Of a stretch of 64,000 bases of DNA, positions 1 through 28,239 are shown piece by piece; the stretch's first letter is position 1, and each line of letters opens with the position of its first letter. Source of the stretch: Saccharothrix sp. HUAS TT1 (GTDB lineage: Bacteria > Actinomycetota > Actinomycetes > Mycobacteriales > Pseudonocardiaceae); NCBI RefSeq assembly GCF_040744945.1, contig NZ_CP160453.1:5022001-5086000 (forward strand), written 5' to 3'. The notes under the pieces are model-generated. The model was given only the letters and a program-made list of their open reading frames with translations, had not been told where the DNA came from and did no database searches. Both the position numbers and the translations under genes were made by a program.

Positions 1-1
1 G

Positions 2-70
2 CTGCCGAACATGGGCAACCTCCGCGCCGTGTACGACGTGCTCGCGCAGTACGCCGACTGGCAGGACTGA
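2..70 (+). CDS. C-terminal end of an upstream gene (possibly acyl carrier protein)
   Basis: Only the last 22 codons are in the window, ending LPNMGNLRAVYDVLAQYADW-QD at a TGA two bases before the KS start. The position directly before a KS/CLF pair and the helix-like, acidic-ended tail would suit an acyl carrier protein, which such operons usually carry. The phosphopantetheine serine would lie outside the window, so the identity is a guess. The reading frame and translational coupling to the KS gene are seen directly. Confidence 0.4.
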   Translation: MPNMGNLRAVYDVLAQYADWQD

Positions 71-72
71 CC

Positions 73-1281
73 GTGTCGCGCCGTGTCGTGATCACGGGCC
101 TCGGCCCGGTGTCGAGCGTGGGCATCGGCGCCGAGGACTTCGGCGCCGCCCTGCGCGAGGGCCGCAGCGGCATCTCCCCGATCTCCAGCTTCGACGCCTC
201 GGGCTTCCCCCACCGCATGGCGGGGGAGGTGCCCGACTTCGACCCGGGGACCATGGTGCGCTCGCTGTCCCCGGACGAGTGGGGGCGCACGAGCCTGTTC
301 GCCGCCGCGGCGGGCCGGCTCGCGGTGGAGGACTCCGGCCTCGACCCGGCGGTGCTCGCGCGGTCCCGGGCCGGTTCCAGCATCGGCACCACCAGCGGCG
401 AGTCGCAGGTGGTCGAACAGCTCACCGCCCAGTGGGTCGACGGCGGCCTGTCCTCGCTGCGACCCGACCTCGTCCGGCAGGCCCCGGCGTCGCGGCTGGC
501 GGTCGCCGTCAACCGCGAGCTGGGCCTGACCGGCGAGGCGATGACCCTGTCCACCGCGTGCTCGGCCAGCAACTACGCGCTGGGCTACGCCTACGACCAG
601 ATCGCGATGGGCGACGCGGACTACATGATCGCGGGCGGCGCGGACTCGGTGTGCCGCTGGGCGCACGCCGGGTTCTACCGCCTGGGCGCCCTCACCGAGC
701 ACGCGTGCAGCCCGTTCGACGCCAACCGGTCGGGCATCCTGACCGGCGAGGGCGGCGCGGCGCTGTTCCTGGAGACCCTGGAGTCGGCCGAGTCCCGCGG
801 CGCGCACGTCTACGCCGAGGTGCTGGGCTACGGCCTCAACTGCGACGCCAACCACATGGTCGCGCCGGACGCGGACAGCATCGCCGAGTGCATGCGCCGC
901 GCCCACCGCAACGCGGGCATCGACGCCTCCCAGGTGGACTACATCTGCGCCCACGGCACGGGGACCCCGGCCAACGACGCGGTCGAGTCCAGGGCGGTGC
1001 TGGACGTCTTCGGCGACACCCCGCCGCCGATCAGCTCCATCAAGTCGATGCTGGGCCACACCATGGGCGCGGCCAGCGGCTTCGGCGCCATCGCCTCGGC
1101 CCTGGGCATCGACCAGGGCTTCATGCCGCCGACGACCAACCACACCACGCCCGACCCGGACCTGGTGGGCATCGACCCCGTGCCGAACAAGGCCCGGATC
1201 GCGCGGCTGGACGTCGTGCAGAACAACGGATTCGCCTTCGGTGGCAACAACGCCATCACGATCCTGGGACGGGTGGCATGA
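73..1281 (+). CDS. Beta-ketoacyl synthase, KS-alpha of type II PKS (pair 1)
   Basis: A 402-residue FabF/KS-alpha fold protein that would condense malonyl-ACP units onto a growing chain in the cytoplasm. It starts VVITGLGPVSSVG. The nucleophile is Cys163 in LSTACSAS, and both catalytic histidines are present in AHGTGTP and LGHTMGAASG, so it should be an active condensing enzyme. The GTG start is two bases after the preceding stop, and the stop overlaps the next ATG (ATGA). The next gene is a Gln-type chain length factor, so the two most likely form a KS/CLF heterodimer. The pairing with a second KS/CLF set downstream points to a highly reducing type II system rather than an aromatic one, because no cyclase or aromatase is seen. 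The KS identity is firm; the product is unknown. Confidence 0.93.
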   Translation: MSRRVVITGLGPVSSVGIGAEDFGAALREGRSGISPISSFDASGFPHRMAGEVPDFDPGTMVRSLSPDEWGRTSLFAAAAGRLAVEDSGLDPAVLARSRAGSSIGTTSGESQVVEQLTAQWVDGGLSSLRPDLVRQAPASRLAVAVNRELGLTGEAMTLSTACSASNYALGYAYDQIAMGDADYMIAGGADSVCRWAHAGFYRLGALTEHACSPFDANRSGILTGEGGAALFLETLESAESRGAHVYAEVLGYGLNCDANHMVAPDADSIAECMRRAHRNAGIDASQVDYICAHGTGTPANDAVESRAVLDVFGDTPPPISSIKSMLGHTMGAASGFGAIASALGIDQGFMPPTTNHTTPDPDLVGIDPVPNKARIARLDVVQNNGFAFGGNNAITILGRVA

Positions 1282-2399
1282 GCACCGCACCGGACACGCT
1301 GGCCATCACCGGCTGGGGAGTGCTGACCTCGACCGGGTTCGGCGCCGACGAGTTCGCCGCCGCGGTCCGCGAGGGCCGCTCCGGGCTGGTCGACGTCGAG
1401 GGCGCCTTCGACGAGCAGCTGCCGACGTCCAAGGCGTGCGCCCTGGTGGGCTTCCACGCCCGCGACCACCTCGGCCGCAAGGGCACCTCGTTCCTGGACC
1501 GCAGCACCTCGCTCGCGCTGATCGGCTGCGAGCTGGCGCTGAACGACACCGGCCTGGTCGTGGACGACGCCAACCGCGACCGCGTCGGCATCGTGCTCGG
1601 CACCACCGCGGGCAGCCTGAAGGCGACCAGCGACTACAGCCGCGAGACGCTGGTGCAGGACAAGCCCTACCTGGTCAACCCCATGCTGTTCCCCAACACG
1701 GTGATGAACTGCGCGGCCGGCCAGTCGGCGATCTGGCACAAGCTCAAGGGCGTCAACGCCACCGTCGCGGGCGGCCAGCTCGCCGGCCTCAACGCCCTGC
1801 GCTACACCAGGAACCTGGTGCGGCGCGGGTACGTGGACGGCGCGCTGGTCGGCGCGGTGGAGGAGTTCAGCCCGCACACCGCGTGGAGCGCGCACCACCT
1901 GCACCGGCAGCTCGGCGTGCAGGTGCCGGTCGGCGAGGGCTCGGCGGTGTTCGTCGCGGAGAACCCGGACGTGGCCCGCGCGGCCGGTCGCACCCCCGAC
2001 GCCGAGGTGCTGGCGGTGGAGATCGGCTACTACGCGCCCACCGGGCAGCTGCCCGACGCGGGCGAGGGCCTGGCGACCACGATCGCCCGCGCCCTGGAGC
2101 GGGCCGGTGTCGCGGCGGACGAGGTGTGGGCCGTGGCCACCGGCGAGACCGGCGCGCAACCGCTCGACGAGGTCGAGGCGCGCGGGGTGGCCGCGGTGTT
2201 CGGCGGCGCCGCCCGTCGGGTGCGCGTCAAGGAGCTGACCGGCGAGTGCCAGGCGGCCTCGGGCGCCCTCCAGCTGGCCGCGCTGCTGTCCCACCACCGG
2301 GACGACCGCGCCCTGGACGGCCGGGTCGGCGTCGTCACCTCGGTGTCGGCGGACGGCGCGGTGGGCGCGGCCGTGGTGCGGGGGTACTCCCGTGCCTAG
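1278..2399 (+). CDS. Chain length factor (KS-beta) of type II PKS (pair 1)
   Basis: A 373-residue KS-fold protein that is probably catalytically silent. Aligning NATVAGGQLAGLNAL with the LSTACSAS motif of the preceding KS puts Gln167 where the nucleophilic Cys should be. Cys-to-Gln replacement is the known hallmark of chain length factors and KSQ domains. The C-terminal His motifs are also lost (ELTGECQAASGALQLA where the KS has LGHTMGAASG). It begins with the ATG that overlaps the KS stop, so equimolar KS and CLF synthesis is expected. It overlaps the next gene by eight bases. The inferred role is to shape the cavity and set the chain length of KS 1. Confidence 0.88.
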   Translation: MSTAPDTLAITGWGVLTSTGFGADEFAAAVREGRSGLVDVEGAFDEQLPTSKACALVGFHARDHLGRKGTSFLDRSTSLALIGCELALNDTGLVVDDANRDRVGIVLGTTAGSLKATSDYSRETLVQDKPYLVNPMLFPNTVMNCAAGQSAIWHKLKGVNATVAGGQLAGLNALRYTRNLVRRGYVDGALVGAVEEFSPHTAWSAHHLHRQLGVQVPVGEGSAVFVAENPDVARAAGRTPDAEVLAVEIGYYAPTGQLPDAGEGLATTIARALERAGVAADEVWAVATGETGAQPLDEVEARGVAAVFGGAARRVRVKELTGECQAASGALQLAALLSHHRDDRALDGRVGVVTSVSADGAVGAAVVRGYSRA

Positions 2400-3501
2400 C
2401 ACGATCACCGGCGCCGAGATCCGAACCTGCCTCGGCGACACGACCACCACGTTCAAGGCGTTGGCGGAGGGCGTGAGCGGGGTGTCACCGCTGCGCTTCC
2501 ACGACACCGCCAAGCTCAACGTCACCCACGGCTACCAGATCGACGACGGTGACGAGGAGCGCCCGCGCCGCGCCGCCGGGTGGCTGGCCGAGTGCGTGGC
2601 CGCCGCGGCGGCGCAGGCCGGGCTCGACACCGCCGGCCGCCGCGTCACCGCGATCGTCGGCACCGGCCTGCGCGAGCTGCGCTCGGTCGAACGGGCGACC
2701 GCGGACGACGTGCCGGTGGCGCCGGAAGAACTGCACTTCGCCGCGGCGGTGCGGGCGGCCCTGCCCGGCGTCGCCGAGGTGATCACGGTGGCCAACGCGT
2801 GCTCGGCGTCCGGGCACGCGCTGGCGCTGGCCGAGGACCTGCTGGCCGCCGACGAGGCGGACGCGGTGGTGGTCGCCGGCTGCGACGCCACCGCGGAGAG
2901 CATGCTGACCATGATCGGCCGCGTCGCGGACGCCCCGACGACCTCCGTGCGGCCGTTCGACCGGGACCGCACGGGCGTCCTGCTCGGCGAGGGCGCGGCG
3001 GCCGTGGTGCTGGAGCGCTCCGGCGACGGCCCCACCGTGCTCGGCGTCGGCCTGTCCTGCGACGCGTTCCACGAGACCGCGCCGGACGTGCGGGGCATCG
3101 TCGCGGCCATGCGCGACGCGCACGACCGCGCCGGCGTCACCCCGGACCGGATCGGTCTGGTGCTGGCGCACGGCACCGGCACGGCGCTGAACGACCCGAC
3201 CGAGGCGGCGGCGCTGACCGAGGTCTTCGGCGCGGCCCGACCGCTGGTCACCGGCGTCAAGGGCGGGATCGGCCACACCTCGGGCGCGGCGGCGCTGATG
3301 AGCCTGGTGCTCGCGGCGCGGGCCGTGCGCGAAGGTCTCGTGCCGCCGGTCACCGGTCTGGTCGAGCCGATCGACGAGGCCGCGGGCCTGCGCCTGGTCG
3401 TCGGCGAGGCCGAGCCGATCACCGGGCCGACCGTGGTGCAGGTGGACGCGTTCGGCTTCGGCGGCGTCAACGCCGTGTGCGTGCTGGAGGTGACCCCGTG
3501 A
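2392..3501 (+). CDS. Second beta-ketoacyl synthase (pair 2)
   Basis: A 369-residue KS-fold protein with the nucleophile Cys137 in VANACSASGHALAL and catalytic histidines in AHGTGTALND and GIGHTSGAAA, so it is predicted active. It is shorter at the N-terminus than KS 1 and diverged from it, so this is not a recent duplicate. The GTG start lies inside the last codons of the CLF gene. The stop overlaps the next GTG (GTGA). A second KS/CLF pair in one operon is typical of highly reducing type II PKS pathways. There, one pair may start the chain or make a shorter segment, but which pair does so cannot be told from sequence. Confidence 0.9.
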   Translation: MPSTITGAEIRTCLGDTTTTFKALAEGVSGVSPLRFHDTAKLNVTHGYQIDDGDEERPRRAAGWLAECVAAAAAQAGLDTAGRRVTAIVGTGLRELRSVERATADDVPVAPEELHFAAAVRAALPGVAEVITVANACSASGHALALAEDLLAADEADAVVVAGCDATAESMLTMIGRVADAPTTSVRPFDRDRTGVLLGEGAAAVVLERSGDGPTVLGVGLSCDAFHETAPDVRGIVAAMRDAHDRAGVTPDRIGLVLAHGTGTALNDPTEAAALTEVFGAARPLVTGVKGGIGHTSGAAALMSLVLAARAVREGLVPPVTGLVEPIDEAAGLRLVVGEAEPITGPTVVQVDAFGFGGVNAVCVLEVTP

Positions 3502-4340
3502 CCGCCGAAGTGCTGGTGACCGCGCAGTCGGTGCACCTGCCCGGACCCGGGGTCGACGACCCGCTGCTCGGCCTGCTGGCCGGCGGTCCGGCGGTGGCGG
3601 CCGACCAGGCGCACGCGCTGCTGGGCCGCAAGGGCCTGCTCTACAAGGAGCCGTCCACCCGGCTGGCGCTGTGCGCCGTGCACCGGGCGCTGGGCCTGCC
3701 CGACGGCAAGCCGCAGCTCCCCCTGCCGGGCGCGGACCGGACCGGCGTCGTGGTCAGCTCGAACTACGGCAACGTCGCCACCGTCGCCGACATCGTCCGC
3801 GAGCAGCGCGCCGGTTCCGGCCACGACGTCAGCCCGCTGCGCAGCCCCAACGCCTCCAGCAACGTCGTGGCCAGCACCATCGCCATCCGGTGGGGCTTCA
3901 CCGGCCCGAACCTGACGGTGTGCTCGGGCGAGACCTCCGGCCTGGACGCGATCTCCCTCGCCGCGCTGACCGTGCGCGCGGGGCGGGCCGACCGGGTGGT
4001 GGTCGTCGGCGTCGAACCCGACGACGACGTCGCCACCGCGCTGGCCGGACCGCTGCGCGCCCTGGCCGCGTGCGTCGTGCTCGAACCCGACCGGGGGCAG
4101 GACGGCGTCCGGCTCGGCCGGGTGGCCCGCACCGCCGCGGTCGACGACCTGCTGCTGGACGCGGCGGGCGCCGACGACCTGGTCGGCCCGACCTCGGGCG
4201 CGCGCGGCGTGCTCCAGGTGGCGCTGGCCGCGGCCTGGCTGCGGTCCGCCGCGGGCACGGCCGCCGGCGTGGTGTGCGGCGGCGACGCCGACGGCTACGC
4301 CGCCGTGCGCCTGACCACCGGGGGAGCGGCGGGCCGATGA
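3498..4340 (+). CDS. Short KS-fold protein, CLF-like with Glu at the active site (pair 2)
   Basis: A 280-residue protein, about 90 residues shorter than its paralogues. GPNLTVCSGETSGLDAI aligns with the KS active-site loop so that Glu145 replaces the Cys. The C-terminal histidine motifs of KS enzymes are absent or very degenerate, although GPTSGARGVLQVALAAAW keeps the shape of the region. It should be non-catalytic and is the natural partner of the KS just upstream (GTGA overlap). CLFs normally carry Gln here, so Glu is unusual. An alternative is a structural subunit that recruits a starter. The reading frame is intact and codon use matches the neighbours, so it is not a pseudogene. Confidence 0.75.
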   Translation: MTAEVLVTAQSVHLPGPGVDDPLLGLLAGGPAVAADQAHALLGRKGLLYKEPSTRLALCAVHRALGLPDGKPQLPLPGADRTGVVVSSNYGNVATVADIVREQRAGSGHDVSPLRSPNASSNVVASTIAIRWGFTGPNLTVCSGETSGLDAISLAALTVRAGRADRVVVVGVEPDDDVATALAGPLRALAACVVLEPDRGQDGVRLGRVARTAAVDDLLLDAAGADDLVGPTSGARGVLQVALAAAWLRSAAGTAAGVVCGGDADGYAAVRLTTGGAAGR

Positions 4341-5155
4341 GCGCGCGGGACGACTGGCAGCCGATCACCGCCGGGGCGGCGACAGCGTGGCGACGGCCCG
4401 GCACGGGTTCGCCCGTGGTCCTCGCGCACGGCCTGGAGGACACCTGGACGGGCTGGCTGCCGCTGGTCGACGGCCTGGCCGGGGACCGCACCTGCTACGC
4501 CCTCGACCTGCCGTGGCGGGCGGGCAGCGCGCACGGCTGGTGCCACGACGGCACACCCGGCGCGGTGCTGCGCGACGTGCTCGCCCACCTGCCCGAGGAG
4601 CCGACCGCCGTGGTCGCGCACTCCTTCGGCGCCAACGCCGTCCTCGAACTGCTCGCCCACGACGGGCTGCCCGGCGCGGTGAGCGCCGTCGCCCTGCTGG
4701 CGCCGTTCTTCCGACCGCCCACCCTGACCGTCGACTGGGAGCTGCACGAGAACGCCCTCGCCGGCGTGCGCCGCGTGATGGCTTCGGGCTTGCGGCTGCG
4801 GCTGGGCGACCGGGCCGACCGGCTGGGCGACGACCTGCTCGACGCGATGGCGGGCACCGTGGTCGACCGCATCGGCCCGGTCGGGTTCGGCGCGTTCTTC
4901 CGCAGCTTCGTCGCCACCACCGACCTGCCGCTGGCCGCGGTGACCACACCGGTGCTGGTGCTCGTCGGCGAGGACGACGAGTGCCTGCGCGGTGAGCGCG
5001 CCACCGCCCTGTCCCGCGCGCTGCCCGCCGCCCGCCTGCGCACCCGGTCCCACTACTCGCACTTCTGCCACGTGGAGCAGGCCGCCGACGTCGCGGCCGA
5101 GCTCGACGCGTTCCTCGACCCGTCCCGCCGCACTCCCGTCGGCGCCAGCACCTGA
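4337..5155 (+). CDS. Alpha/beta-hydrolase
   Basis: A 272-residue cytoplasmic alpha/beta-hydrolase. The nucleophile elbow reads VVAHSFGANAVLEL (Ser in AHSFG), the acid is probably in LVLVGEDDECLRGE, and the catalytic His is in SHYSHFCHVEQAAD near the C-terminus. The oxyanion region is VLAHGLEDTWTGW. ATGA overlap with the preceding KS-fold gene places it in the PKS operon. The likely job is hydrolysis or transacylation releasing the chain from ACP (a discrete thioesterase), or hydrolysis of an activated intermediate. No lid or transmembrane segment is seen. The fold is secure; the substrate is inferred from context only. Confidence 0.82.
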   Translation: MSARDDWQPITAGAATAWRRPGTGSPVVLAHGLEDTWTGWLPLVDGLAGDRTCYALDLPWRAGSAHGWCHDGTPGAVLRDVLAHLPEEPTAVVAHSFGANAVLELLAHDGLPGAVSAVALLAPFFRPPTLTVDWELHENALAGVRRVMASGLRLRLGDRADRLGDDLLDAMAGTVVDRIGPVGFGAFFRSFVATTDLPLAAVTTPVLVLVGEDDECLRGERATALSRALPAARLRTRSHYSHFCHVEQAADVAAELDAFLDPSRRTPVGAST

Positions 5156-5166
5156 AGGAAGCTCCC

Positions 5167-6117
5167 ATGACCGCGACGCTCGACGCGGGCCCCACCACCT
5201 ACGTGGGCCGCCCCCGCTACGAAGGCGCGAACATCCGCACCTGGATCGGCTTCAAGCACTTCACCTACCTGCTCGAAGAGGCCGTGCTGCAGCACTTCCG
5301 CGACCGCGGGATCGGCCCCGACGCGCTGTACCACCGGCACGGGCTGGGCATCGAGTTCGTGGAGACCTCCATCCAGCTCCCGGCCACCCTGCTGGTGGAC
5401 GACGAGGTCACCGCGACCGTCGTGCCCGCCAAGGCCAAGCCGGGCCACGGCGCCGCGTTCACCGTGCGGCTGGGCGTCCGGCGCGACGACCGCGACGTCA
5501 CCGTGCTGACCGGCAAGGTCCGGATCGCCCTGGTGGCGGAGAAGGACGCGCCCGGCCACGAGCCGGTGCCGGTCGAGCTGGTGCCGTTCGTGGTCTCCGA
5601 GGTGGCCGAGCTGGAGAGCGCCGCGTCCGTGCGCCGCGACGTCGAGTGCGCCGGCGGGGTCGCCGACGTGCTCACCCCGGCGGGCTCCAACGCCTTCCTG
5701 TGGTCCTGGCGCATCCCGTACTTCTACTGCCACTTCTCCCTGCGGTTCCAGCACTCCGGCTACACCCGGGCGCTGGAGGAGGTGGTGGACCGCTTCCTGC
5801 ACGAGCGCGGCCTGGGCATCGGCAAGCTGCTCGACGAGCGCGGCTGGATCCCCGTCGTGTCGCGCGCCCGCGTGCGGTTGCTGGCCGACGCGCACATGGA
5901 GGAGACGCTGCACACCGTCTTCACCGTGGAGGAAATCCTCAAGGACGTCATGTACACCGCGCGCATGGACACCTACGTGCGGCGTGGCGACACCCTGGTG
6001 CACACCGCCACCGCGTCCATCGTGCACGGCTACGCGGTCAGCCGCGGTGAGAACGCCGGGTCGCTGGCCGAGTTCGACCCCGAGACCCGCGCCGCCCTGC
6101 TGGGCGGTGACCGCTGA
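5167..6117 (+). CDS. Double-hotdog acyl thioesterase/dehydratase-like protein
   Basis: A 316-residue protein of two tandem hotdog-like halves (about residues 15-150 and 165-305). Both halves carry segments typical of 4HBT/FabA-like acyl enzymes (WIGFKHFTYLLEEAVLQHF in the first, LEEVVDRFLHERG in the second). It is preceded by a clear AAGGAAG ribosome binding site. Its TGA overlaps the next ATG (TGATG). In reducing type II PKS operons such proteins act as dehydratases on beta-hydroxyacyl-ACP or as thioesterases. No textbook catalytic motif decides between these, so the activity is inferred from fold and location. Confidence 0.62.
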   Translation: MTATLDAGPTTYVGRPRYEGANIRTWIGFKHFTYLLEEAVLQHFRDRGIGPDALYHRHGLGIEFVETSIQLPATLLVDDEVTATVVPAKAKPGHGAAFTVRLGVRRDDRDVTVLTGKVRIALVAEKDAPGHEPVPVELVPFVVSEVAELESAASVRRDVECAGGVADVLTPAGSNAFLWSWRIPYFYCHFSLRFQHSGYTRALEEVVDRFLHERGLGIGKLLDERGWIPVVSRARVRLLADAHMEETLHTVFTVEEILKDVMYTARMDTYVRRGDTLVHTATASIVHGYAVSRGENAGSLAEFDPETRAALLGGDR

Positions 6118-6833
6118 TGGCCCGCAAGCCACCGCGCCTGTACTTCAACCTGCGCAGCCCGTTCAGCTGGATGTCCCTGCGCCGGCTGGAGGAGCGCCTG
6201 CCGCAGGCCCGCGAGATCATCGAGTTCGTCCCCTACTGGGACCCGGACGCGGAGACGGTGCGCGGCCTTGAGGAGCGCGGCGCGGGCTACCACTACGTGC
6301 AGATGAGCAAGGCCAAGCACCTGTACATCCTCCAGGACACCAAGCGGCTCACCGCGCGCTTCGGCTACTCCATGACGTGGCCGGTCGACGTCGACCCCTG
6401 GTGGGAGCTGCCGCACCTGGGCTGGCTCAAGGCGCGCCACCTCGGTCAGGACCGCGTGTTCTACGACGCGGTGACCGGCGCCCGGTGGGGGCGCGGCGAG
6501 AACATCTGCGACGCCGACGTGCTGCGCCGCGTGCTGTCCGACGCGGGCCTCGACCCGGAGCCGCTGGTGACGGCCGCGCACGACCCCGCCATCCGCGCCG
6601 AGGGGCTGGACGCCATGGAGCAGGCGTGGAAGGACGACGTCTTCGGCATCCCCTACTTCAAGGTCGGGCGGCACCGCTTCTGGGGCCTGGACCGGGTGGA
6701 CGACTACCTGGACGCCCTGCTGCCCACGCTCGCCGACCAGCTCGTGCCCGCCGCGGTGCTGGACGACCTGCCCGCACCCGTGCTGGAGCGCGTGGGAGGG
6801 CTCGACCACGACACCGCGGGCGGCTGCGGCTGA
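6117..6833 (+). CDS. DsbA-fold isomerase, 2-hydroxychromene-2-carboxylate isomerase family
   Basis: A 238-residue thioredoxin-fold protein of the GST-kappa/HCCA isomerase group. The N-terminal strand and active-site loop read LYFNLRSPFSWMSL, giving Ser-Pro-Phe-Ser in place of the redox CxxC, so it should isomerise rather than oxidise thiols. The cis-Pro loop is FGIPYFKVGRHRFWG, followed by DRVDDYLDALL. HCCA isomerases use glutathione for cis/trans isomerisation. Since actinomycetes lack glutathione, another thiol or none is likely. In this operon it could isomerise double bonds of a polyene intermediate. The fold is firm, the reaction inferred. Confidence 0.75.
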   Translation: MARKPPRLYFNLRSPFSWMSLRRLEERLPQAREIIEFVPYWDPDAETVRGLEERGAGYHYVQMSKAKHLYILQDTKRLTARFGYSMTWPVDVDPWWELPHLGWLKARHLGQDRVFYDAVTGARWGRGENICDADVLRRVLSDAGLDPEPLVTAAHDPAIRAEGLDAMEQAWKDDVFGIPYFKVGRHRFWGLDRVDDYLDALLPTLADQLVPAAVLDDLPAPVLERVGGLDHDTAGGCG

Positions 6834-6866
6834 CCGCCCACCCCGACCGCCTACCCAGGAGCGACC

Positions 6867-8294
6867 ATGACCGTGCTCGCGGAACGTCCCACGGAACTGC
6901 CCGCCGTCCCACCCGATCCGCGCGATCCGGAGTTCCGGTTGGCGCAGCTGCTCGACCCCGGTTCGATCGTGCCGCTGCGTCCGCGTGACGACAGCGGCAT
7001 GTTCGCGGTGCGGGGACGCATCGACGGCGCGAGGGTCGTGGCCTACTGCAGTGATGCCACGCGGATGGGTGGCGCGTTGGGGTCACAGGGGTGTGGGCAC
7101 ATCGTGGAGGCGATCGACACCGCGGTGCGTGAGCGCGTCCCGGTGATCGGGGTGTGGCACTCCGGCGGCGCGAGGCTGCCGGAGGGGGTGGAGTCGCTGG
7201 ACGGCATGGGCCGGATGTTCGCGGCGATGATCCGGGCCTCGGGGCGGGTGCCGCAGGTCTCGGTCGTGGTCGGCCCCGCCGCCGCCGGCGGCGGCGCGTA
7301 CGGGCCGGCGTTGACCGACGTGGTCGTGATGGCCCCGGCCGGGAAGGTGTTCGTGACCGGGCCGGACGTGGTGCGGTCGGTGACCGGCGAGCGGATCGAC
7401 ATGGACGGTCTGGGCGGGGCGGAGGCGCACGGGCGCAGGTCCGGTGTGGTGCACGTGGTGGCCGAGGACGAGCCCGACGCCTACCTGCGGGCGCGGCGGA
7501 TCACCGGGCTGTTCGCCCGGCCGGGGGTGTTCGACCTGCAGTCGGTGCCCGACGGGGAGGACCTGCGGGCGTTGCTGCCGGACCGGCCGCGGCGGGCCTA
7601 CGACGTCAAGCCGCTGGTGCGGGCGATCCTGGACGAGGACTCGTTGGAGGAGTTGCAGGCGCGGTGGGCGCCCAACGTCGTGGTCGGCCTGGGCCGGTTG
7701 GGCGGGCGCGCGGTGGGGGTGATCGCGAACAACCCGATCCGCAAGGGCGGCTGCCTGGACTCGTTGTCGGCGGAGAAGGCGGCGCGGTTCGTGCGGATGT
7801 GCGACGCGTTCGGGGTGCCGTTGCTGGTGCTGGTGGACGTGCCGGGGTATCTGCCCGGGGTGGGGCAGGAGTGGGACGGGGTGGTGCGGCGGGGCGCGAA
7901 GCTGCTGCACGCCTTCGGCGAGGCCGTCGTGCCGCGGGTGACGCTGGTGACGCGCAAGTCCTACGGCGGGGCCTACATCGCGATGAACTCGCGGTCGCTG
8001 GGCGCCACGGCGGTGTTCGCGTGGCCGGAGGCGGAGGTGGCCGTGATGGGTGCGGGGGCCGCGGTGGGCATCCTGCACCGCAGGAAGCTCGCGGCCGTGC
8101 CCGACGAGGAGCGCGAGGCGCTGCACGCCGAGTTGGTGCGGGAGCACGAGCGGATCGCCGGCGGCGTGGACCGGGCGATCGCGATCGGCGTCGTGGACGA
8201 GGTCGTCGACCCCACCCGAACCCGCCGGGCACTGGCCCGGGCCCTCGCCGCGGCCCCCGCCGGCCGCGGCGCGCACGGCAACATCCCGCTGTAG
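6867..8294 (+). CDS. Acyl-CoA carboxylase carboxyltransferase (beta) subunit
   Basis: A 475-residue protein of two crotonase-like carboxyltransferase domains, about the usual size for AccD/PccB. The N-terminal half has the acyl-CoA oxyanion segment (WHSGGARLPEGVESL, AAAGGGAYGPALTD) and VFVTGPDVVRSVTGE. The C-terminal half has the carboxybiotin site (LVLVDVPGYLPGVGQEWDG, KSYGGAYIAM). It would move CO2 from carboxybiotin to an acyl-CoA and so make malonyl-, methylmalonyl- or a longer dicarboxylic CoA unit. The biotin carboxylase/carrier subunit is not in the window. It starts 33 bases after the isomerase with the ribosome binding site AGGAGCG. From about 7030 to 8200 it uses many TTG, GGG and other G-ended codons, unlike its C-ended neighbours. 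That visual impression suggests a separate origin within the operon. Confidence 0.9.
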   Translation: MTVLAERPTELPAVPPDPRDPEFRLAQLLDPGSIVPLRPRDDSGMFAVRGRIDGARVVAYCSDATRMGGALGSQGCGHIVEAIDTAVRERVPVIGVWHSGGARLPEGVESLDGMGRMFAAMIRASGRVPQVSVVVGPAAAGGGAYGPALTDVVVMAPAGKVFVTGPDVVRSVTGERIDMDGLGGAEAHGRRSGVVHVVAEDEPDAYLRARRITGLFARPGVFDLQSVPDGEDLRALLPDRPRRAYDVKPLVRAILDEDSLEELQARWAPNVVVGLGRLGGRAVGVIANNPIRKGGCLDSLSAEKAARFVRMCDAFGVPLLVLVDVPGYLPGVGQEWDGVVRRGAKLLHAFGEAVVPRVTLVTRKSYGGAYIAMNSRSLGATAVFAWPEAEVAVMGAGAAVGILHRRKLAAVPDEEREALHAELVREHERIAGGVDRAIAIGVVDEVVDPTRTRRALARALAAAPAGRGAHGNIPL

Positions 8295-8302
8295 GAGGAG
8301 CG

Positions 8303-8752
8303 ATGCTCGACCGCTTTGGTGGACGGCGCGTGCTGCTGAGCAGCGTGTCCTCCGACTCGCACACCTGGAACCTGGTGTTCCTCCAGCTGCTGCTGGAGGA
8401 GCAGGGGCACGAGGTGGTCAACCTGGGCGCGTGCGCGCCCGACGACCTGGTCCTGGCGCACTGCCTCGCGGACGCGCCGGACCTGCTCGTCATCAGCACC
8501 GTCAACGGCCACGGCCACGCCGACGGCAAGCGCCTGATCGCCAAGTTGCGCGCGGAACCGGCGCTGCGCGGCCTGCCCGCCGTCATCGGCGGCAAGCTCG
8601 GCGTGGCGGGCGCCGCCGACCTGGACCGCGTCGCCGACCTGGTCGACGCCGGGTTCGACGCGGTCTTCGCGGAGGGCTCCGACCTGGGCGCGTTCACCCA
8701 CTTCGTCACCGCCGCCGGTGAGCGGCGGGCACTGGAAGGCGCTGCCACGTGA
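8303..8752 (+). CDS. glmS: Glutamate mutase S (B12-binding) subunit
   Basis: A 149-residue B12-binding Rossmann-like protein, the usual size of the sigma/S component of glutamate mutase. The base-off B12 signature DxHxxG appears as D18-S-H20-T-W-N23, with the cobalt-ligating His20 kept but Asn in place of the Gly. The following signatures are LLVISTVNGHGHADG (where others have SxL...GHG) and AVIGGKLGVAG (GG motif). With the E subunit next door it should turn L-glutamate into L-threo-3-methylaspartate. A GGAGGAG site precedes the ATG, and its last four bases overlap the E-subunit GTG. Within this operon the product probably feeds a starter or side-chain unit. The altered motif could also mean a changed substrate. 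Confidence 0.85.
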   Translation: MLDRFGGRRVLLSSVSSDSHTWNLVFLQLLLEEQGHEVVNLGACAPDDLVLAHCLADAPDLLVISTVNGHGHADGKRLIAKLRAEPALRGLPAVIGGKLGVAGAADLDRVADLVDAGFDAVFAEGSDLGAFTHFVTAAGERRALEGAAT

Positions 8753-10053
8753 CCGGTTTCGCCGCGTTCGTCCGGGACGCGCACGCCGCCGGGCACCTCG
8801 TCGTCCAACCCCGGATGGGTTTCGGCGACGCGGAGCGGATGCGCGCCGGCCTGGTCGCCACCCGCCGGGCCCGCGCCACGGCCGTCGGCACGATCACCCT
8901 CGACAGCTACACCCGGATCGGCGACTACCAGGCGCTGAGGGTGGCGGAGGCCCGGGGCACGCCCCTCAACGGGTACCCGCTCGTCACCACCGACCCGACC
9001 ACCACGGCGCACGTGCTGTCCGACGCGGTGGCGCACGGCTTCCCCGTCCAGGTCCGGCACGGCTCCCCGCTGCCCGGCGACATCGTCACCGCCCTGGTCC
9101 GCCTCGGCCTGGACGCCACCGAGGGCGGCCCGGTGTCCTACTGCCTGCCGTACGGGAGGTCGCCGCTGCGCGACTCCGTCACCGGCTGGCGGCGCGCCGT
9201 CGAGGCGTTCGCCGCCGCGCCGGGCGAACCGCACCTGGAGAGCTTCGGCGGCTGCATGATGGGCCAGCTGTGCCCGCCCAGCCTGCTCGTGGCGCTCACC
9301 GTGCTGGAGGGCCTGTTCTTCCGCGCGCACGGCATCCGCAGCCTGTCGCTGAGCTTCACCCAGCAGACCAACGCCGAGCAGGACGCCGAAGCGCTGCGCG
9401 CCCTGCACCGGCTGGCCGCGGACCTGCTGCCCGACGTCGACCACCACGTGGTGCTCTACGCCTACATGGGCGTCCACCCGCGAACCGAAGCGGGCTCCCT
9501 GGCGTTGCTCGCCGACGCCACCCGGCTGGCCGTGCGCGGCTCGGCGGCGCGGCTGATCGTGAAGACGCCGGCCGAGGCGCACCGCATCCCGAGGATCGCC
9601 GAGAACGTGGCGTCCCTGGAGCACGCCGCCGCCACCGCCCGCGCCACCTCCCGCACCGGTCCGCCGATCGCGGACACCGGGATCGAGGCCCAGGCGCGCA
9701 CGCTCGTCGCGGCCGTGCTCGACCTGCACCCGGACGTGGGCGAGGCGCTGGCGCGCGCGTTCGAGACCGGTGTGCTGGACGTGCCCTACTGCCTGCACCC
9801 GGACAACGCCAACCGCTCCCGCGCCCACGTGGACGGCGCCGGGTGGCTGCGCTGGTCGTCGGTGGGCGCGATGCCGCTGATCCCCGACGGCCCGCCCACC
9901 GCGGTCACCAGCAGCACCCTGCTGACCGCCCTGCACCACGTCGAGCAGCGCTACGACCGCGTGGCCCTGACCGCCGCCCCCGCACCCGCGGTGGAGCGGC
10001 GCCACGACCGCCTGGCCCTGACCGCCGCCCCCGCCCCGGCGGCCGAGCGATGA
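8749..10053 (+). CDS. glmE: Glutamate mutase E (epsilon, catalytic) subunit
   Basis: A 434-residue TIM-barrel protein matching the catalytic component of adenosylcobalamin-dependent glutamate mutase. Recognisable segments are QPRMGFGD near the N-terminus, SFGGCMMGQLCPPSLLVAL, SLSFTQQTNAEQDAEALRA and LDVPYCLHPDNANRS. It binds glutamate and pairs with the S subunit across the cobalamin. The GTG start overlaps the S-subunit stop (GTGA), so the two are co-translated. The C-terminus carries an unusual 17-residue tandem duplication of the type xDRxALTAAPAPAxER (from base 9952) that is outside the known fold. It may be a flexible tail added by slippage or duplication. In other actinomycete clusters (vicenistatin, friulimicin) glutamate mutase makes 3-methylaspartate as a building block. 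Confidence 0.88.
   Translation: MTGFAAFVRDAHAAGHLVVQPRMGFGDAERMRAGLVATRRARATAVGTITLDSYTRIGDYQALRVAEARGTPLNGYPLVTTDPTTTAHVLSDAVAHGFPVQVRHGSPLPGDIVTALVRLGLDATEGGPVSYCLPYGRSPLRDSVTGWRRAVEAFAAAPGEPHLESFGGCMMGQLCPPSLLVALTVLEGLFFRAHGIRSLSLSFTQQTNAEQDAEALRALHRLAADLLPDVDHHVVLYAYMGVHPRTEAGSLALLADATRLAVRGSAARLIVKTPAEAHRIPRIAENVASLEHAAATARATSRTGPPIADTGIEAQARTLVAAVLDLHPDVGEALARAFETGVLDVPYCLHPDNANRSRAHVDGAGWLRWSSVGAMPLIPDGPPTAVTSSTLLTALHHVEQRYDRVALTAAPAPAVERRHDRLALTAAPAPAAER
9952..10050 (+). repeat. 51-bp tandem duplication at the 3' end of glmE
   Basis: Two near-identical in-frame units begin at 9952 and 10003. They encode YDRVALTAAPAPAVERR and HDRLALTAAPAPAAER. The second copy runs into the stop codon. 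Confidence 0.85.
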
Positions 10054-10601
10054 CCCACCTGATCGACACCGTGCTGCCCGCCTGGGAGCACCGCGAGCAC
10101 CACGCCCGCCGCGTCGCCGCCCCGCCCGAGCGGGTCTGGGCGGCGCTGGTCGACCTGCGGGTGTCCGACCTGCCCCTGACCATGGCCCTGGTCCGCCTGC
10201 GCGGCGGCCCGGTGGCCTGGTTGCGCGGCGTGCAGGCGCCGCCGGACACCCGCGCGCTCACCTCGTTCGCCCCGAAACCGGTGCTCGACGACCCGCCGCA
10301 CGAGATCGTCCTCGCCGACGTGGCCCGCTACACCAGGCTCGCACCGGGCCGGCCGGACCTGCCGCGCGGCGACGGCGCGGCGTTCACCGCGTTCGACGAG
10401 CCCGGCTGGACCAAGGTCGTGATGAACTTCCGCCTCGACCCGGACGGGGAGCACGGCACGCTGCTGTCCACCGAGACCCGCGTGCACAGCACCGACGCCA
10501 CCACCCGCCTCGCGTTCCGCCCGTACTGGCTGCTGGTCCGCTTCGGCAGCGGCCTCATCCGGCGCGACCTGCTCGCCGCCACCGCGCGCACCGCGGTGTG
10601 A
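10050..10601 (+). CDS. SRPBCC-fold (START/Bet v1-like) protein
   Basis: A 183-residue protein with the SRPBCC start motif RRVAAPPERVWAALVDL and the C-terminal helix region TRLAFRPYWLLVRFGSGLIRR. The central part has strands ending in TLLSTETRVHSTD, as in actinobacterial proteins annotated as polyketide cyclase/dehydrase-like. The ATG overlaps the glmE stop (ATGA), so it closes the operon. Members bind hydrophobic ligands, and some cyclise polyketides. Here a role in binding or modifying the pathway product is plausible but unproven. It is the last gene before a fresh promoter. Confidence 0.65.
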   Translation: MTHLIDTVLPAWEHREHHARRVAAPPERVWAALVDLRVSDLPLTMALVRLRGGPVAWLRGVQAPPDTRALTSFAPKPVLDDPPHEIVLADVARYTRLAPGRPDLPRGDGAAFTAFDEPGWTKVVMNFRLDPDGEHGTLLSTETRVHSTDATTRLAFRPYWLLVRFGSGLIRRDLLAATARTAV

Positions 10602-10679: not shown

Positions 10680-11195
10680 ATGACGCGCACCGCCGCGCCC
10701 ATTCGACGCGGCCGGTGGCTGGGGTGGGCGGTGTTCGTCGTCGGATCTCTCTACGCCGCGGTCAGCGCCTACTGGGCGATCGGCGGCACCGCCGGTCTGG
10801 ACACCCTCGGCGGCACGCTCGCCGAACTGGCCCGCGCCCGCGACCCGCGGCTCATCGCCGTCGTGTGGGTCACGGTCGTGCTCAAGCTGGTCGGAGCCCT
10901 GCTGGGGCCCGCCCTGGTCGAGCCGTGGGGCCGCCGCGTGCCGCGCTGGATGCTGCTCACCGCGTCCTGGACCGCCACGGTCGTCCTGGTCCTCTACGGC
11001 GGTGTCCTGACCGTCGCGCAGGCCCTGATCGCGCTCGGCGTGCTGCCGCGGGCGGGGTCCTACGACGCGCTGGCGTTCTACTGGCACCTGTTCGTCTGGG
11101 ACCCCTGGTTCCTGCTGTGGGGGCTGCTGCTGGGTGTGGCCACGCTGCGCTTCACCCGGCGGGGGGCAGCCCGGAGGGGCGCGGGGCAAGCCTGA
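10680..11195 (+). CDS. DUF3995-type integral membrane protein
   Basis: A 171-residue protein with about four membrane segments: WLGWAVFVVGSLYAAVSAYWA, LIAVVWVTVVLKLVGALLG, LTASWTATVVLVLYGGVL and FLLWGLLLGVATL. Between helices 3 and 4 lies a loop with HLFVWDPW, a feature of the DUF3995 family. An upstream in-frame ATG at 10617 is rejected because it sits in the promoter; the chosen ATG follows GGAACGGAG. The function is unknown, and it has its own promoter so need not belong to the PKS operon. Confidence 0.72.
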   Translation: MTRTAAPIRRGRWLGWAVFVVGSLYAAVSAYWAIGGTAGLDTLGGTLAELARARDPRLIAVVWVTVVLKLVGALLGPALVEPWGRRVPRWMLLTASWTATVVLVLYGGVLTVAQALIALGVLPRAGSYDALAFYWHLFVWDPWFLLWGLLLGVATLRFTRRGAARRGAGQA

Positions 11196-27687: not shown

Positions 27688-28239
27688 TCAGCCGGCGATC
27701 CTGCCGAACAGGTGCGCGGCGGGGGAGTTCGGGTCGTCGCCGTAGAAGAACTCCGCCAGCGCCTGGTGGAACTCGGCGCGACTCAGCCAACCCGAGCCGT
27801 CCAGGTCCAACGCGTCGAAGACCGCGGCGCAGTCCTCGGGGGACACGTTGCCCGCCAGGCCGAAGATCTCCCCGAACTCGGCCCGGTCGAGCCTGTCGTC
27901 ACCGTCGAGGTCGATCAGGTCGAAGTAGCAGTCGCCCACCGGCCCGACCTGCTGCGGGTACAGGGCGGGGTCGGCCAGCGCCCGCCGGAACCCCTCGGTC
28001 ATCTCCCGCAGGTCGACCTTCCCGTCGCCGTCCTGGTCCATCGGCGCGATCACGTTGGCCCAGAACGCGTCCAGCCCGTCGGTCAACCGGCGGGCGGTCG
28101 TGGACCCCGGCGCCGCGTCACGAGCAGCGATGTACCGCTCGCCCATCAACCGGACGTCCTGCCGGGTGATCACCCCGTCGCCGTCGACGTCCGCGCCCTC
28201 GAACCACTGGCGGTACTTGAGATCCTGAACTGCAGTCAT
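27688..28239 (-). CDS. Four-EF-hand calcium-binding protein (calerythrin-like)
   Basis: A 183-residue acidic protein with four EF-hand loops: DVDGDGVITRQD, DQDGDGKVDLRE, DLDGDDRLDRAE and DLDGSGWLSRAE. The 1-3-5-12 ligand positions are kept in all four. The size and spacing match calerythrin and other actinomycete sarcoplasmic-type calcium proteins. It is cytosolic and likely a calcium buffer or sensor. No partner gene is adjacent: downstream is the LacI relic and upstream a molybdopterin enzyme. Confidence 0.92.
   Translation of the reverse strand: MTAVQDLKYRQWFEGADVDGDGVITRQDVRLMGERYIAARDAAPGSTTARRLTDGLDAFWANVIAPMDQDGDGKVDLREMTEGFRRALADPALYPQQVGPVGDCYFDLIDLDGDDRLDRAEFGEIFGLAGNVSPEDCAAVFDALDLDGSGWLSRAEFHQALAEFFYGDDPNSPAAHLFGRIAG

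What the first reader, a model, noticed from the sequence alone, without database searches (positions are those of the whole stretch)
1..10601. Type II PKS with two KS/CLF pairs joined to glutamate mutase and a carboxyltransferase
One overlapping operon codes two KS/CLF pairs, a double-hotdog protein, a DsbA-fold isomerase, an acyl-CoA carboxyltransferase and both glutamate mutase subunits. Two KS/CLF pairs with an isomerase suggest a highly reducing (polyene-forming) type II PKS. Glutamate mutase is known to supply 3-methylaspartate in vicenistatin and friulimicin pathways. I do not know a characterised pathway that has all of these together. The carboxyltransferase might make an unusual extender, or the mutase product might be a starter or amide partner.
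Basis: partly seen in the sequence, partly recalled or inferred. Interest (0 to 1): 0.8.

Follow-up and report, generated by a model that had tools for sequence, protein, structure and literature searches.

The report
Coprisamide-type cinnamoyl peptide gene cluster
This is most of the acyl-chain half of a bacterial gene cluster that very probably makes a coprisamide-like cyclic peptide capped with an alkenyl-cinnamic acid, so the odd gene combination is real but belongs to a known kind of natural-product pathway.

Summary
The same genome to the left holds the rest of one cluster: ACP, dehydratases, KR, MbtH, a six-module NRPS, an ABC transporter and SbnA/SbnB (2,3-diaminopropionate, Dap). Read in order, the adenylation signatures fit Val?-Ser-Leu?-Val-Dap-(methyl)Asp, with epimerase domains after modules 1-3; coprisamide C is listed as alkenyl-cinnamoyl, D-Ser, D-Leu, Val, Dap, beta-methyl-Asp plus Val. 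The signatures recur in five relatives' clusters. So the mutase makes a peptide residue, and the two KS/CLF pairs with isomerase make the cinnamoyl cap. The carboxyltransferase is no exotic-extender enzyme: it is a 99.7%-identical DNA copy (1382 bp) of this genome's accD6 in a fatty-acid-synthesis operon, hence malonyl-CoA supply; the nearest relative keeps only a remnant. In the mutase-bearing clusters compared, a KAS III gene and the START-fold gene exclude each other, suggesting a straight, coprisamide A/B-like acyl chain here. The published coprisamide cluster itself could not be compared. New member of a known kind; modest interest.

The parts
1..70 (+). 3' end of the acyl carrier protein gene (whole gene G000:C1:5021804-5022070)
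   Evidence: PF00550 52.8 bits; gene call
73..1281 (+). KS1, ketosynthase of the first KS/CLF pair
   Evidence: PF00109/PF02801; active-site Cys present
1278..2399 (+). CLF1, chain length factor
   Evidence: PF00109/PF02801; Gln at the Cys position
2392..3501 (+). KS2, ketosynthase of the second pair
   Evidence: PF02801/PF00109; active-site Cys present
3498..4340 (+). CLF2, short chain length factor (280 aa)
   Evidence: PF00109; Glu at the Cys position; short length usual for the group (median 313 aa, n=59 best-hit genes in 80 loci)
4337..5155 (+). alpha/beta-hydrolase, perhaps an editing or off-loading enzyme (inferred)
   Evidence: PF00561/PF12697
5167..6117 (+). double-hotdog protein, acyl-ACP thioesterase-like fold; role in the PKS unknown
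6117..6833 (+). DsbA-fold isomerase of the cinnamoyl-type PKS
   Evidence: PF01323; PDB 3fz5, possible 2-hydroxychromene-2-carboxylate isomerase; family search
6867..8294 (+). AccD6-type acyl-CoA carboxylase carboxyltransferase; near-identical copy of the accD6 in the fatty-acid-synthesis operon
   Evidence: best PDB match AccD6 (4fb8), 682 bits; 99.7% DNA identity over 1382 bp to C1:8424395-8425773; neighbours there by Pfam: acyltransferase, KAS III, ACP, KS
8303..8752 (+). glutamate mutase small (B12-binding) subunit
   Evidence: PF02310 43.4 bits
8749..10053 (+). glutamate mutase large subunit (MutE); only match in the genome
   Evidence: PF06368 252.9 bits; one match in own genome
10050..10601 (+). 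START/SRPBCC-fold protein, no Pfam match; role unknown
10680..11195 (+). DUF3995 membrane protein, last gene of the conserved block
   Evidence: PF13160 75 bits; matched in 4 of 4 compared relative regions

Best explanation
The stretch is the right-hand part of a coprisamide-type biosynthetic gene cluster of about 43-46 kb (G000:C1:about 4987400-5033195). Inferred route: the AccD6 copy helps make malonyl-CoA; ACP, KS1/CLF1, KR and two dehydratase-type proteins build a polyene; the isomerase sets the cis bond needed for ring closure; KS2/CLF2 completes the chain; ring closure gives a 2-alkenyl-cinnamoyl-ACP. The first condensation domain of the NRPS takes this acyl group. Six modules (C-A-T-E, C-A-T-E | C-A-T-E, C-A-T, C-A-T, C-A-T-TE) add residues 1-6, predicted (Val), D-Ser, D-Leu, Val, 2,3-diaminopropionate (Dap) and beta-methylaspartate; the terminal thioesterase releases a ring. 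SbnA/SbnB make Dap; glutamate mutase makes beta-methylaspartate from glutamate. Shown: gene content, order, family membership, domain content, conserved signatures, the AccD6 copy. Inferred: substrates, ring closure, product.
For: Left flank of the same genome: SbnB and SbnA above NCBIfam cut-offs (389.4 vs 326.9; 402.8 vs 349.95), ABC transporter pair, MbtH, KR, FabA-like DH, ACP. NRPS by Pfam: 4 condensation-type, 2 A, 2 T in the first protein; 5 condensation-type, 4 A, 4 T and TE in the second; order from motifs, E assigned by lying between T and the next C or after the last T. Signatures read by hand on motif anchors: DVFSVAIVYK, DVWHISLVDK, DALLVGAVAK, DAYWWGGTFK, DIWEMTADDK, DLTKLGMVNK; their meanings (Ser, Val, basic diamino, Asp-type) are recalled, no call tells them. 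Coprisamide C is listed as an alkenyl-cinnamoyl cap, cyc(D-Ser, D-Leu, Val, Dap, beta-methyl-Asp) and Val (PMC13192320, table passage and legend). All six signatures recur, with at most 2 of 9 letters changed in any one, in 5 of 5 relatives' clusters fetched with the whole NRPS (Saccharothrix S26, Actinokineospora, Prauserella, Micromonospora tulbaghiae, Micromonospora CB01531), and modules 3-6 in a sixth, cut one. M. tulbaghiae carries SbnA/B, two KS/CLF pairs, isomerase and MutS/MutE in one block. A published table gives Streptomyces rugosispiralis RCU-064 a cluster 95% similar to coprisamide C/D (PMC10525797, table passage); locus L019 of that strain has two KS/CLF pairs, isomerase, MutS, MutE, SbnB and a cut SbnA.
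Against: The coprisamide C/D cluster (BGC0002378, named) was not compared and its paper is not held. The first module has an epimerase domain, while the review writes the exocyclic Val as a capital (L) letter. A review calls coprisamides A/B cyclic heptapeptides; six modules predict six residues. Modules 1 and 3 are assigned only by analogy with coprisamide C. Two C domains of the second NRPS protein were not caught by the motif and are placed by Pfam count. AccD6 and the START-fold gene were not found in the M. tulbaghiae and CB01531 clusters. No enzyme for the aromatising step was recognised. No product has been seen from this strain. That L019 is the 95%-similar cluster is inferred from strain and content.
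Confidence: 0.88

Rival explanations
1. The carboxyltransferase makes an unusual extender unit, so the polyketide part is not a plain malonate-derived cinnamoyl chain.
For: A carboxyltransferase gene lies inside the operon; within the flanks held, 12 of 80 related loci have a carboxyltransferase match, 6 of them near full length at 41-42% identity.
Against: It is AccD6-type and 99.7% identical in DNA over 1382 bp to the copy beside acyltransferase, KAS III, ACP and KS genes elsewhere in this genome; of 4 compared relatives 3 have no match in the stretches held and 1 a remnant of about 0.4 kb.
Confidence: 0.04
2. The AccD6 copy is a self-resistance spare of a target enzyme rather than a supply gene.
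For: Near-identical duplicate of a fatty-acid-synthesis gene inside an antibiotic-type cluster; recalled precedent of a carboxyltransferase homologue in the andrimid cluster.
Against: Its sequence is practically that of the other copy, so it would not be less sensitive; not found intact in the 4 compared clusters of the same type; no such target is named in the coprisamide passages read.
Confidence: 0.06
3. Mutase and carboxyltransferase form a separate primary-metabolic unit that merely adjoins a type II PKS.
For: Both families have primary-metabolic members (recalled).
Against: Closely packed or overlapping genes; MutS, MutE and the START-fold gene lie in this order behind the isomerase in 12 of 80 loci; MutE is single-copy; an Asp-type NRPS module ends the assembly line.
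Confidence: 0.02
4. The cluster makes a cinnamoyl peptide that differs from the coprisamides in ring or cap (a new congener or scaffold; not exclusive with the best explanation where only the cap differs).
For: An SHMT-like gene matched in only two of four compared relatives, the START-fold gene, and no KAS III gene, unlike the Micromonosporaceae clusters.
Against: All six module signatures are shared with the two Micromonospora clusters.
Confidence: 0.25

Closest known systems
Coprisamides (A/B from Streptomyces sp. SNU533, C/D from Micromonospora sp. UTJ3; MIBiG BGC0002378 for C/D)
   Same: Ser, Leu, Val, Dap, beta-methyl-Asp and an alkenyl-cinnamoyl cap fit the six modules and the SbnA/B, mutase and PKS genes.
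   Different: No gene-level comparison with the published cluster was possible; this cluster has AccD6, a START-fold gene and an SHMT-like gene and lacks the KAS III gene of the Micromonosporaceae relatives.
Skyllamycin, WS9326A, kitacinnamycin, epoxinnamide (other cinnamoyl-containing nonribosomal peptides)
   Same: Polyene-type KS/CLF, KR, dehydratase and isomerase beside an NRPS (kitacinnamycin paper, part 1 of 3; epoxinnamide paper, passages); skyllamycin also has beta-methyl-Asp.
   Different: Other peptide scaffolds; Dap is not mentioned for them in the passages read; 'mutase' does not occur in the epoxinnamide main text.
Youssoufene / globisporamic acid type II PKS
   Same: Highly reducing type II PKS with a cis-trans isomerase and several KS/CLF pairs (PMC9381841 passages).
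   Different: Three KS/CLF pairs; different products.
Glutamate mutase in friulimicin and vicenistatin pathways
   Same: Makes 3-methylaspartate for secondary metabolism (recalled; papers seen only as search listings).
   Different: Other scaffolds: lipopeptide and macrolactam starter (recalled).

Membership tests
Cinnamoyl-containing nonribosomal peptide (CCNP) cluster | Polyene-type KS, KR and isomerase genes together with ACP, DH and NRPS genes (gene set used by the 51-cluster mining paper; its E-value thresholds were not applied) | tested here: met
Cinnamoyl-containing nonribosomal peptide (CCNP) cluster | Product carries an N-terminal cinnamoyl group | not testable with these tools
   needs metabolite isolation
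Coprisamide type | Genes for 2,3-diaminopropionate and beta-methylaspartate beside the cinnamoyl PKS and NRPS | tested here: met
   SbnA/SbnB above cut-off; MutS/MutE; same block in relatives
Coprisamide type | Six-module NRPS fitting Val, D-Ser, D-Leu, Val, Dap, beta-methyl-Asp | tested here: inconclusive
   module number, signatures 2, 4, 5, 6 and the epimerases of modules 2 and 3 fit; signature meanings are recalled, modules 1 and 3 assigned by analogy, and the epimerase of module 1 does not fit an L-Val
Coprisamide type | Gene-by-gene match to BGC0002378 | not tested
   paper not held; no record of it in the collections was searched
Glutamate mutase (methylaspartate mutase) | MutE plus B12-binding MutS subunit | tested here: met
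Glutamate mutase (methylaspartate mutase) | Classical D-x-H-x-x-G cobalamin motif in the small subunit (motif recalled) | tested here: not met
   D-S-H-T-W-N in the window; D-[SA]-HTWN in 11 of 12 related loci, the 12th hit starting inside the motif; the D-x-H core is kept, so working as a mutase is not excluded
AccD6-type carboxyltransferase | Closer to AccD6 than to PccB-type carboxyltransferases | tested here: met
   682 bits to AccD6 against 383 to the best PccB-type entry
START/SRPBCC aromatase/cyclase (gene 10050-10601) | Helix-grip fold | tested here: met
START/SRPBCC aromatase/cyclase (gene 10050-10601) | Cyclase activity on an ACP-bound polyene | not testable with these tools
   needs assay; many ligand-binding proteins share the fold

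The most novel reading that the evidence does not exclude
The START-fold gene behind the mutase (10050-10601) is a so far unassigned dedicated cyclase/aromatase or chain-tailoring protein of the alkenyl-cinnamoyl pathway in acetate-started coprisamide-type clusters, taking a role that the Micromonosporaceae clusters (which carry a KAS III gene instead) fill otherwise; and the cluster's accD6 is kept near-identical to the fatty-acid-synthesis copy by gene conversion, tying malonyl-CoA supply to the cluster.
Probability: 0.15. Interest if true: 0.5.

Novelty: new member of a known kind. Interest (0 to 1): 0.3.

Why it matters
It turns an apparently unexplained gene mixture into a concrete, testable product prediction (a coprisamide-like peptide with beta-methylaspartate, Dap and probably a straight-chain alkenyl-cinnamoyl cap) and shows this kind of cluster in several actinobacterial genera. 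It also leaves two small questions that can be tested: what the START-fold gene does in a pathway whose benzene-ring formation is said to need further research for a sister compound (epoxinnamide), and whether the accD6 copy is homogenised with the fatty-acid-synthesis gene.

Tried and rejected
Considered and rejected: unusual extender unit, polyketide starter role of 3-methylaspartate, separate primary-metabolic unit (see rivals). The SHMT-like gene was first thought a threonine transaldolase; the 60 best of 87 PDB sequence matches shown are all called serine hydroxymethyltransferase, and the usual PLP-lysine motif (recalled) was not seen by eye in it or its two homologues, so no role is claimed. 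A strict tie of the START-fold gene to glutamate mutase was considered: it holds in the 12 of 80 loci that have MutE in the fetched flank, but 4 of 12 genomes searched have no match to the START-fold protein although each has MutE. Further MutE copies in five of those genomes have no START-fold match beside them. A pattern look for the cobalamin motif in twelve small-subunit loci found it in seven and missed five and is not used. The automatic signature reader was unreliable and was replaced by hand reading and alignment transfer; one search prints one wrong letter for module 6 (an anchor offset; G is right) and stopped with an error after printing six relatives and two short fragments, which are not used. 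Structure searches are second looks at Foldseek's own ranking. Literature: seven searches; in the listings and passages seen, no held paper describes the coprisamide genes; this covers only the held open-licence library.
Full report
Observation. The window lies at G000:C1:5022001-5086000 of an 8.7-Mb genome in two contigs. Two genes were missed: an alpha/beta-hydrolase (4337-5155) and an unannotated gene overlapping the end of MutE (10050-10601). Of 11 junctions from KS1 to DUF3995, 7 overlap by 1-8 bases. The KSs keep the catalytic Cys, the CLFs do not. The second CLF is short (280 aa), which is usual for the group: median 313 aa among 59 best-hit genes in 80 loci; 49 of 80 loci have best-hit genes for all four KS/CLF proteins.

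Left flank. Directly upstream, on the same strand, are ACP, two dehydratase-type proteins (one with a Pfam FabA match; the other has no Pfam match and is called so by eye), KR, MbtH and two NRPS genes of 4902 and 3055 aa; divergent from these are an ABC transporter pair, an SHMT-like gene, SbnA and SbnB. SbnA and SbnB pass the NCBIfam cut-offs for 2,3-diaminopropionate biosynthesis. The NRPS reads C-A-T-E-C-A-T-E and C-A-T-E-C-A-T-C-A-T-C-A-T-TE: domain numbers from Pfam, order from motifs; two C domains were not caught by the motif and are placed by the Pfam count.

Specificity. The ten-letter signatures, read by hand on motif anchors, are DVFSVAIVYK, DVWHISLVDK, DALLVGAVAK, DAYWWGGTFK, DIWEMTADDK, DLTKLGMVNK (the last letter K is the usual invariant lysine, not read). 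From recall, the second is a Ser type, the fourth Val, the fifth a small basic diamino acid, the sixth Asp/Asn; the first and third I could not assign alone. A 2026 review (PMC13192320; passages and legend) lists coprisamide C as an alkenyl-phenyl-propenoyl cap, a ring of D-Ser, D-Leu, Val, 2,3-diaminopropanoic acid and beta-methyl-Asp, and a Val outside it. The order of ring residues is the order of modules 2-6, and the D residues fall on modules 2 and 3, which have epimerase domains. Module 1 would then take the exocyclic Val, though its epimerase domain predicts a D residue whereas the review's capital letter implies L. Another review calls coprisamides A/B cyclic heptapeptides (PMC4778507 passage), one residue more than six modules give; I could not resolve this.

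Relatives. One scan of genome contigs with an alignment of 22 isomerases gave 91 confirmed stretches, of which the best 80 became loci. In 12 of these 80, MutS, MutE and the START-fold gene follow the isomerase in this order (Saccharothrix, Prauserella, Solihabitans, Actinokineospora, Rhodococcus x2, Streptomyces x6). MutE was found in 11 of 13 genomes searched; a fourteenth, of L024, is not held. Longer stretches of four relatives show the block from SbnB to DUF3995 nearly whole: what lacks a match is the SHMT-like gene in two, AccD6 in three (a remnant in the fourth) and the START-fold gene in one. None of the genes called between DUF3995 and window position 28239 (g46-g62) has a match there at E 1e-8, apart from a weak 26% match of a regulator in a looser comparison, so the right border is near 11195. 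To the left, one regulator is shared with Saccharothrix only and a second chiefly with it, which puts that border near C1:4987400. All six signatures recur in 5 of 5 whole NRPS sets. In Micromonospora tulbaghiae the mutase genes lie at the far end of the same block, about 33 kb from the isomerase that follows KS2/CLF2, beside a second isomerase. A published table lists a coprisamide C/D-like cluster of 95% similarity in Streptomyces rugosispiralis RCU-064 (PMC10525797 table passage), the strain of locus L019. Skyllamycin, another cinnamoyl peptide, also contains beta-methyl-Asp (PMC13194151 passage), so a cinnamoyl PKS with a source of methylaspartate is not confined to coprisamides.

Carboxyltransferase. 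Sequence search puts it with AccD6 (682 bits against 383 for the best PccB-type entry). In its own genome it has a copy of 98% protein identity, 99.7% DNA identity over 1382 bp, one mismatch and one gap. That copy follows genes for an acyltransferase, a KAS III, an ACP and a KS (gene calls; Pfam), the usual fabD-fabH-acpP-fabF set. About the first 15 codons differ. In the nearest relative, Saccharothrix S26, the same spot holds a remnant of about 0.4 kb, in which an open frame of 117 aa can still be called. Its five pieces match S26's own fab-operon accD6 at 90-100% and the window's copy at 86-91%, while the two fab-operon genes match at 88%. So each cluster copy resembles the fab-operon gene of its own genome. 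Either accD6 entered this spot twice, or it entered once and was homogenised by gene conversion in each lineage, then decayed in S26; two genomes cannot decide. Both readings make it a malonyl-CoA supply gene (inferred). Within the flanks held, 12 of 80 loci have a carboxyltransferase match, 6 near full length at 41-42% identity.

Verdict. Real, coherent and, I think, explained: a new member of the coprisamide type of cinnamoyl-containing nonribosomal peptide clusters.

Noticed in passing
window 6867-8294 and G000:C1:8424395-8425773: Cluster-borne accD6 is 99.7% identical in DNA to the fab-operon accD6 of the same genome, while the nearest relative's cluster has a decayed remnant that resembles its own fab-operon copy: possible gene conversion.
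   Followed up: partly
G000:C1:4992376-4993704 (left of the window): SHMT-like gene beside SbnA, matched in 2 of 4 compared relatives; the usual PLP-lysine motif (recalled) is not seen by eye in the three sequences: perhaps a non-PLP SHMT relative.
   Followed up: partly
window 10050-10601: START-fold gene overlapping MutE; among the mutase-bearing cinnamoyl clusters compared, it and a KAS III-like gene exclude each other.
   Followed up: partly
window 10680-11195: DUF3995 membrane protein matched in 4 of 4 compared relatives, also where the gene order differs; role unknown.
   Followed up: no
window 6117-6833 (isomerase C-terminus): A C-terminal tail ending AGGCG, with a Cys, is kept in 18 of 22 aligned isomerases and absent in 4 shorter ones.
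   Followed up: no
window 8303-8752: Small mutase subunit has D-S-H-T-W-N where the recalled classical motif is D-x-H-x-x-G; D-[SA]-HTWN in 11 of 12 related loci, the 12th hit starting inside the motif.
   Followed up: partly
G000:C1:6805196-6806572 and 4832872-4834272: Two further AccD6-like genes (74% and 70%) elsewhere in the genome.
   Followed up: no
L056 and G008:C11 region: Micromonospora tulbaghiae cluster has a second isomerase and a second alpha/beta-hydrolase next to MutS/MutE.
   Followed up: no
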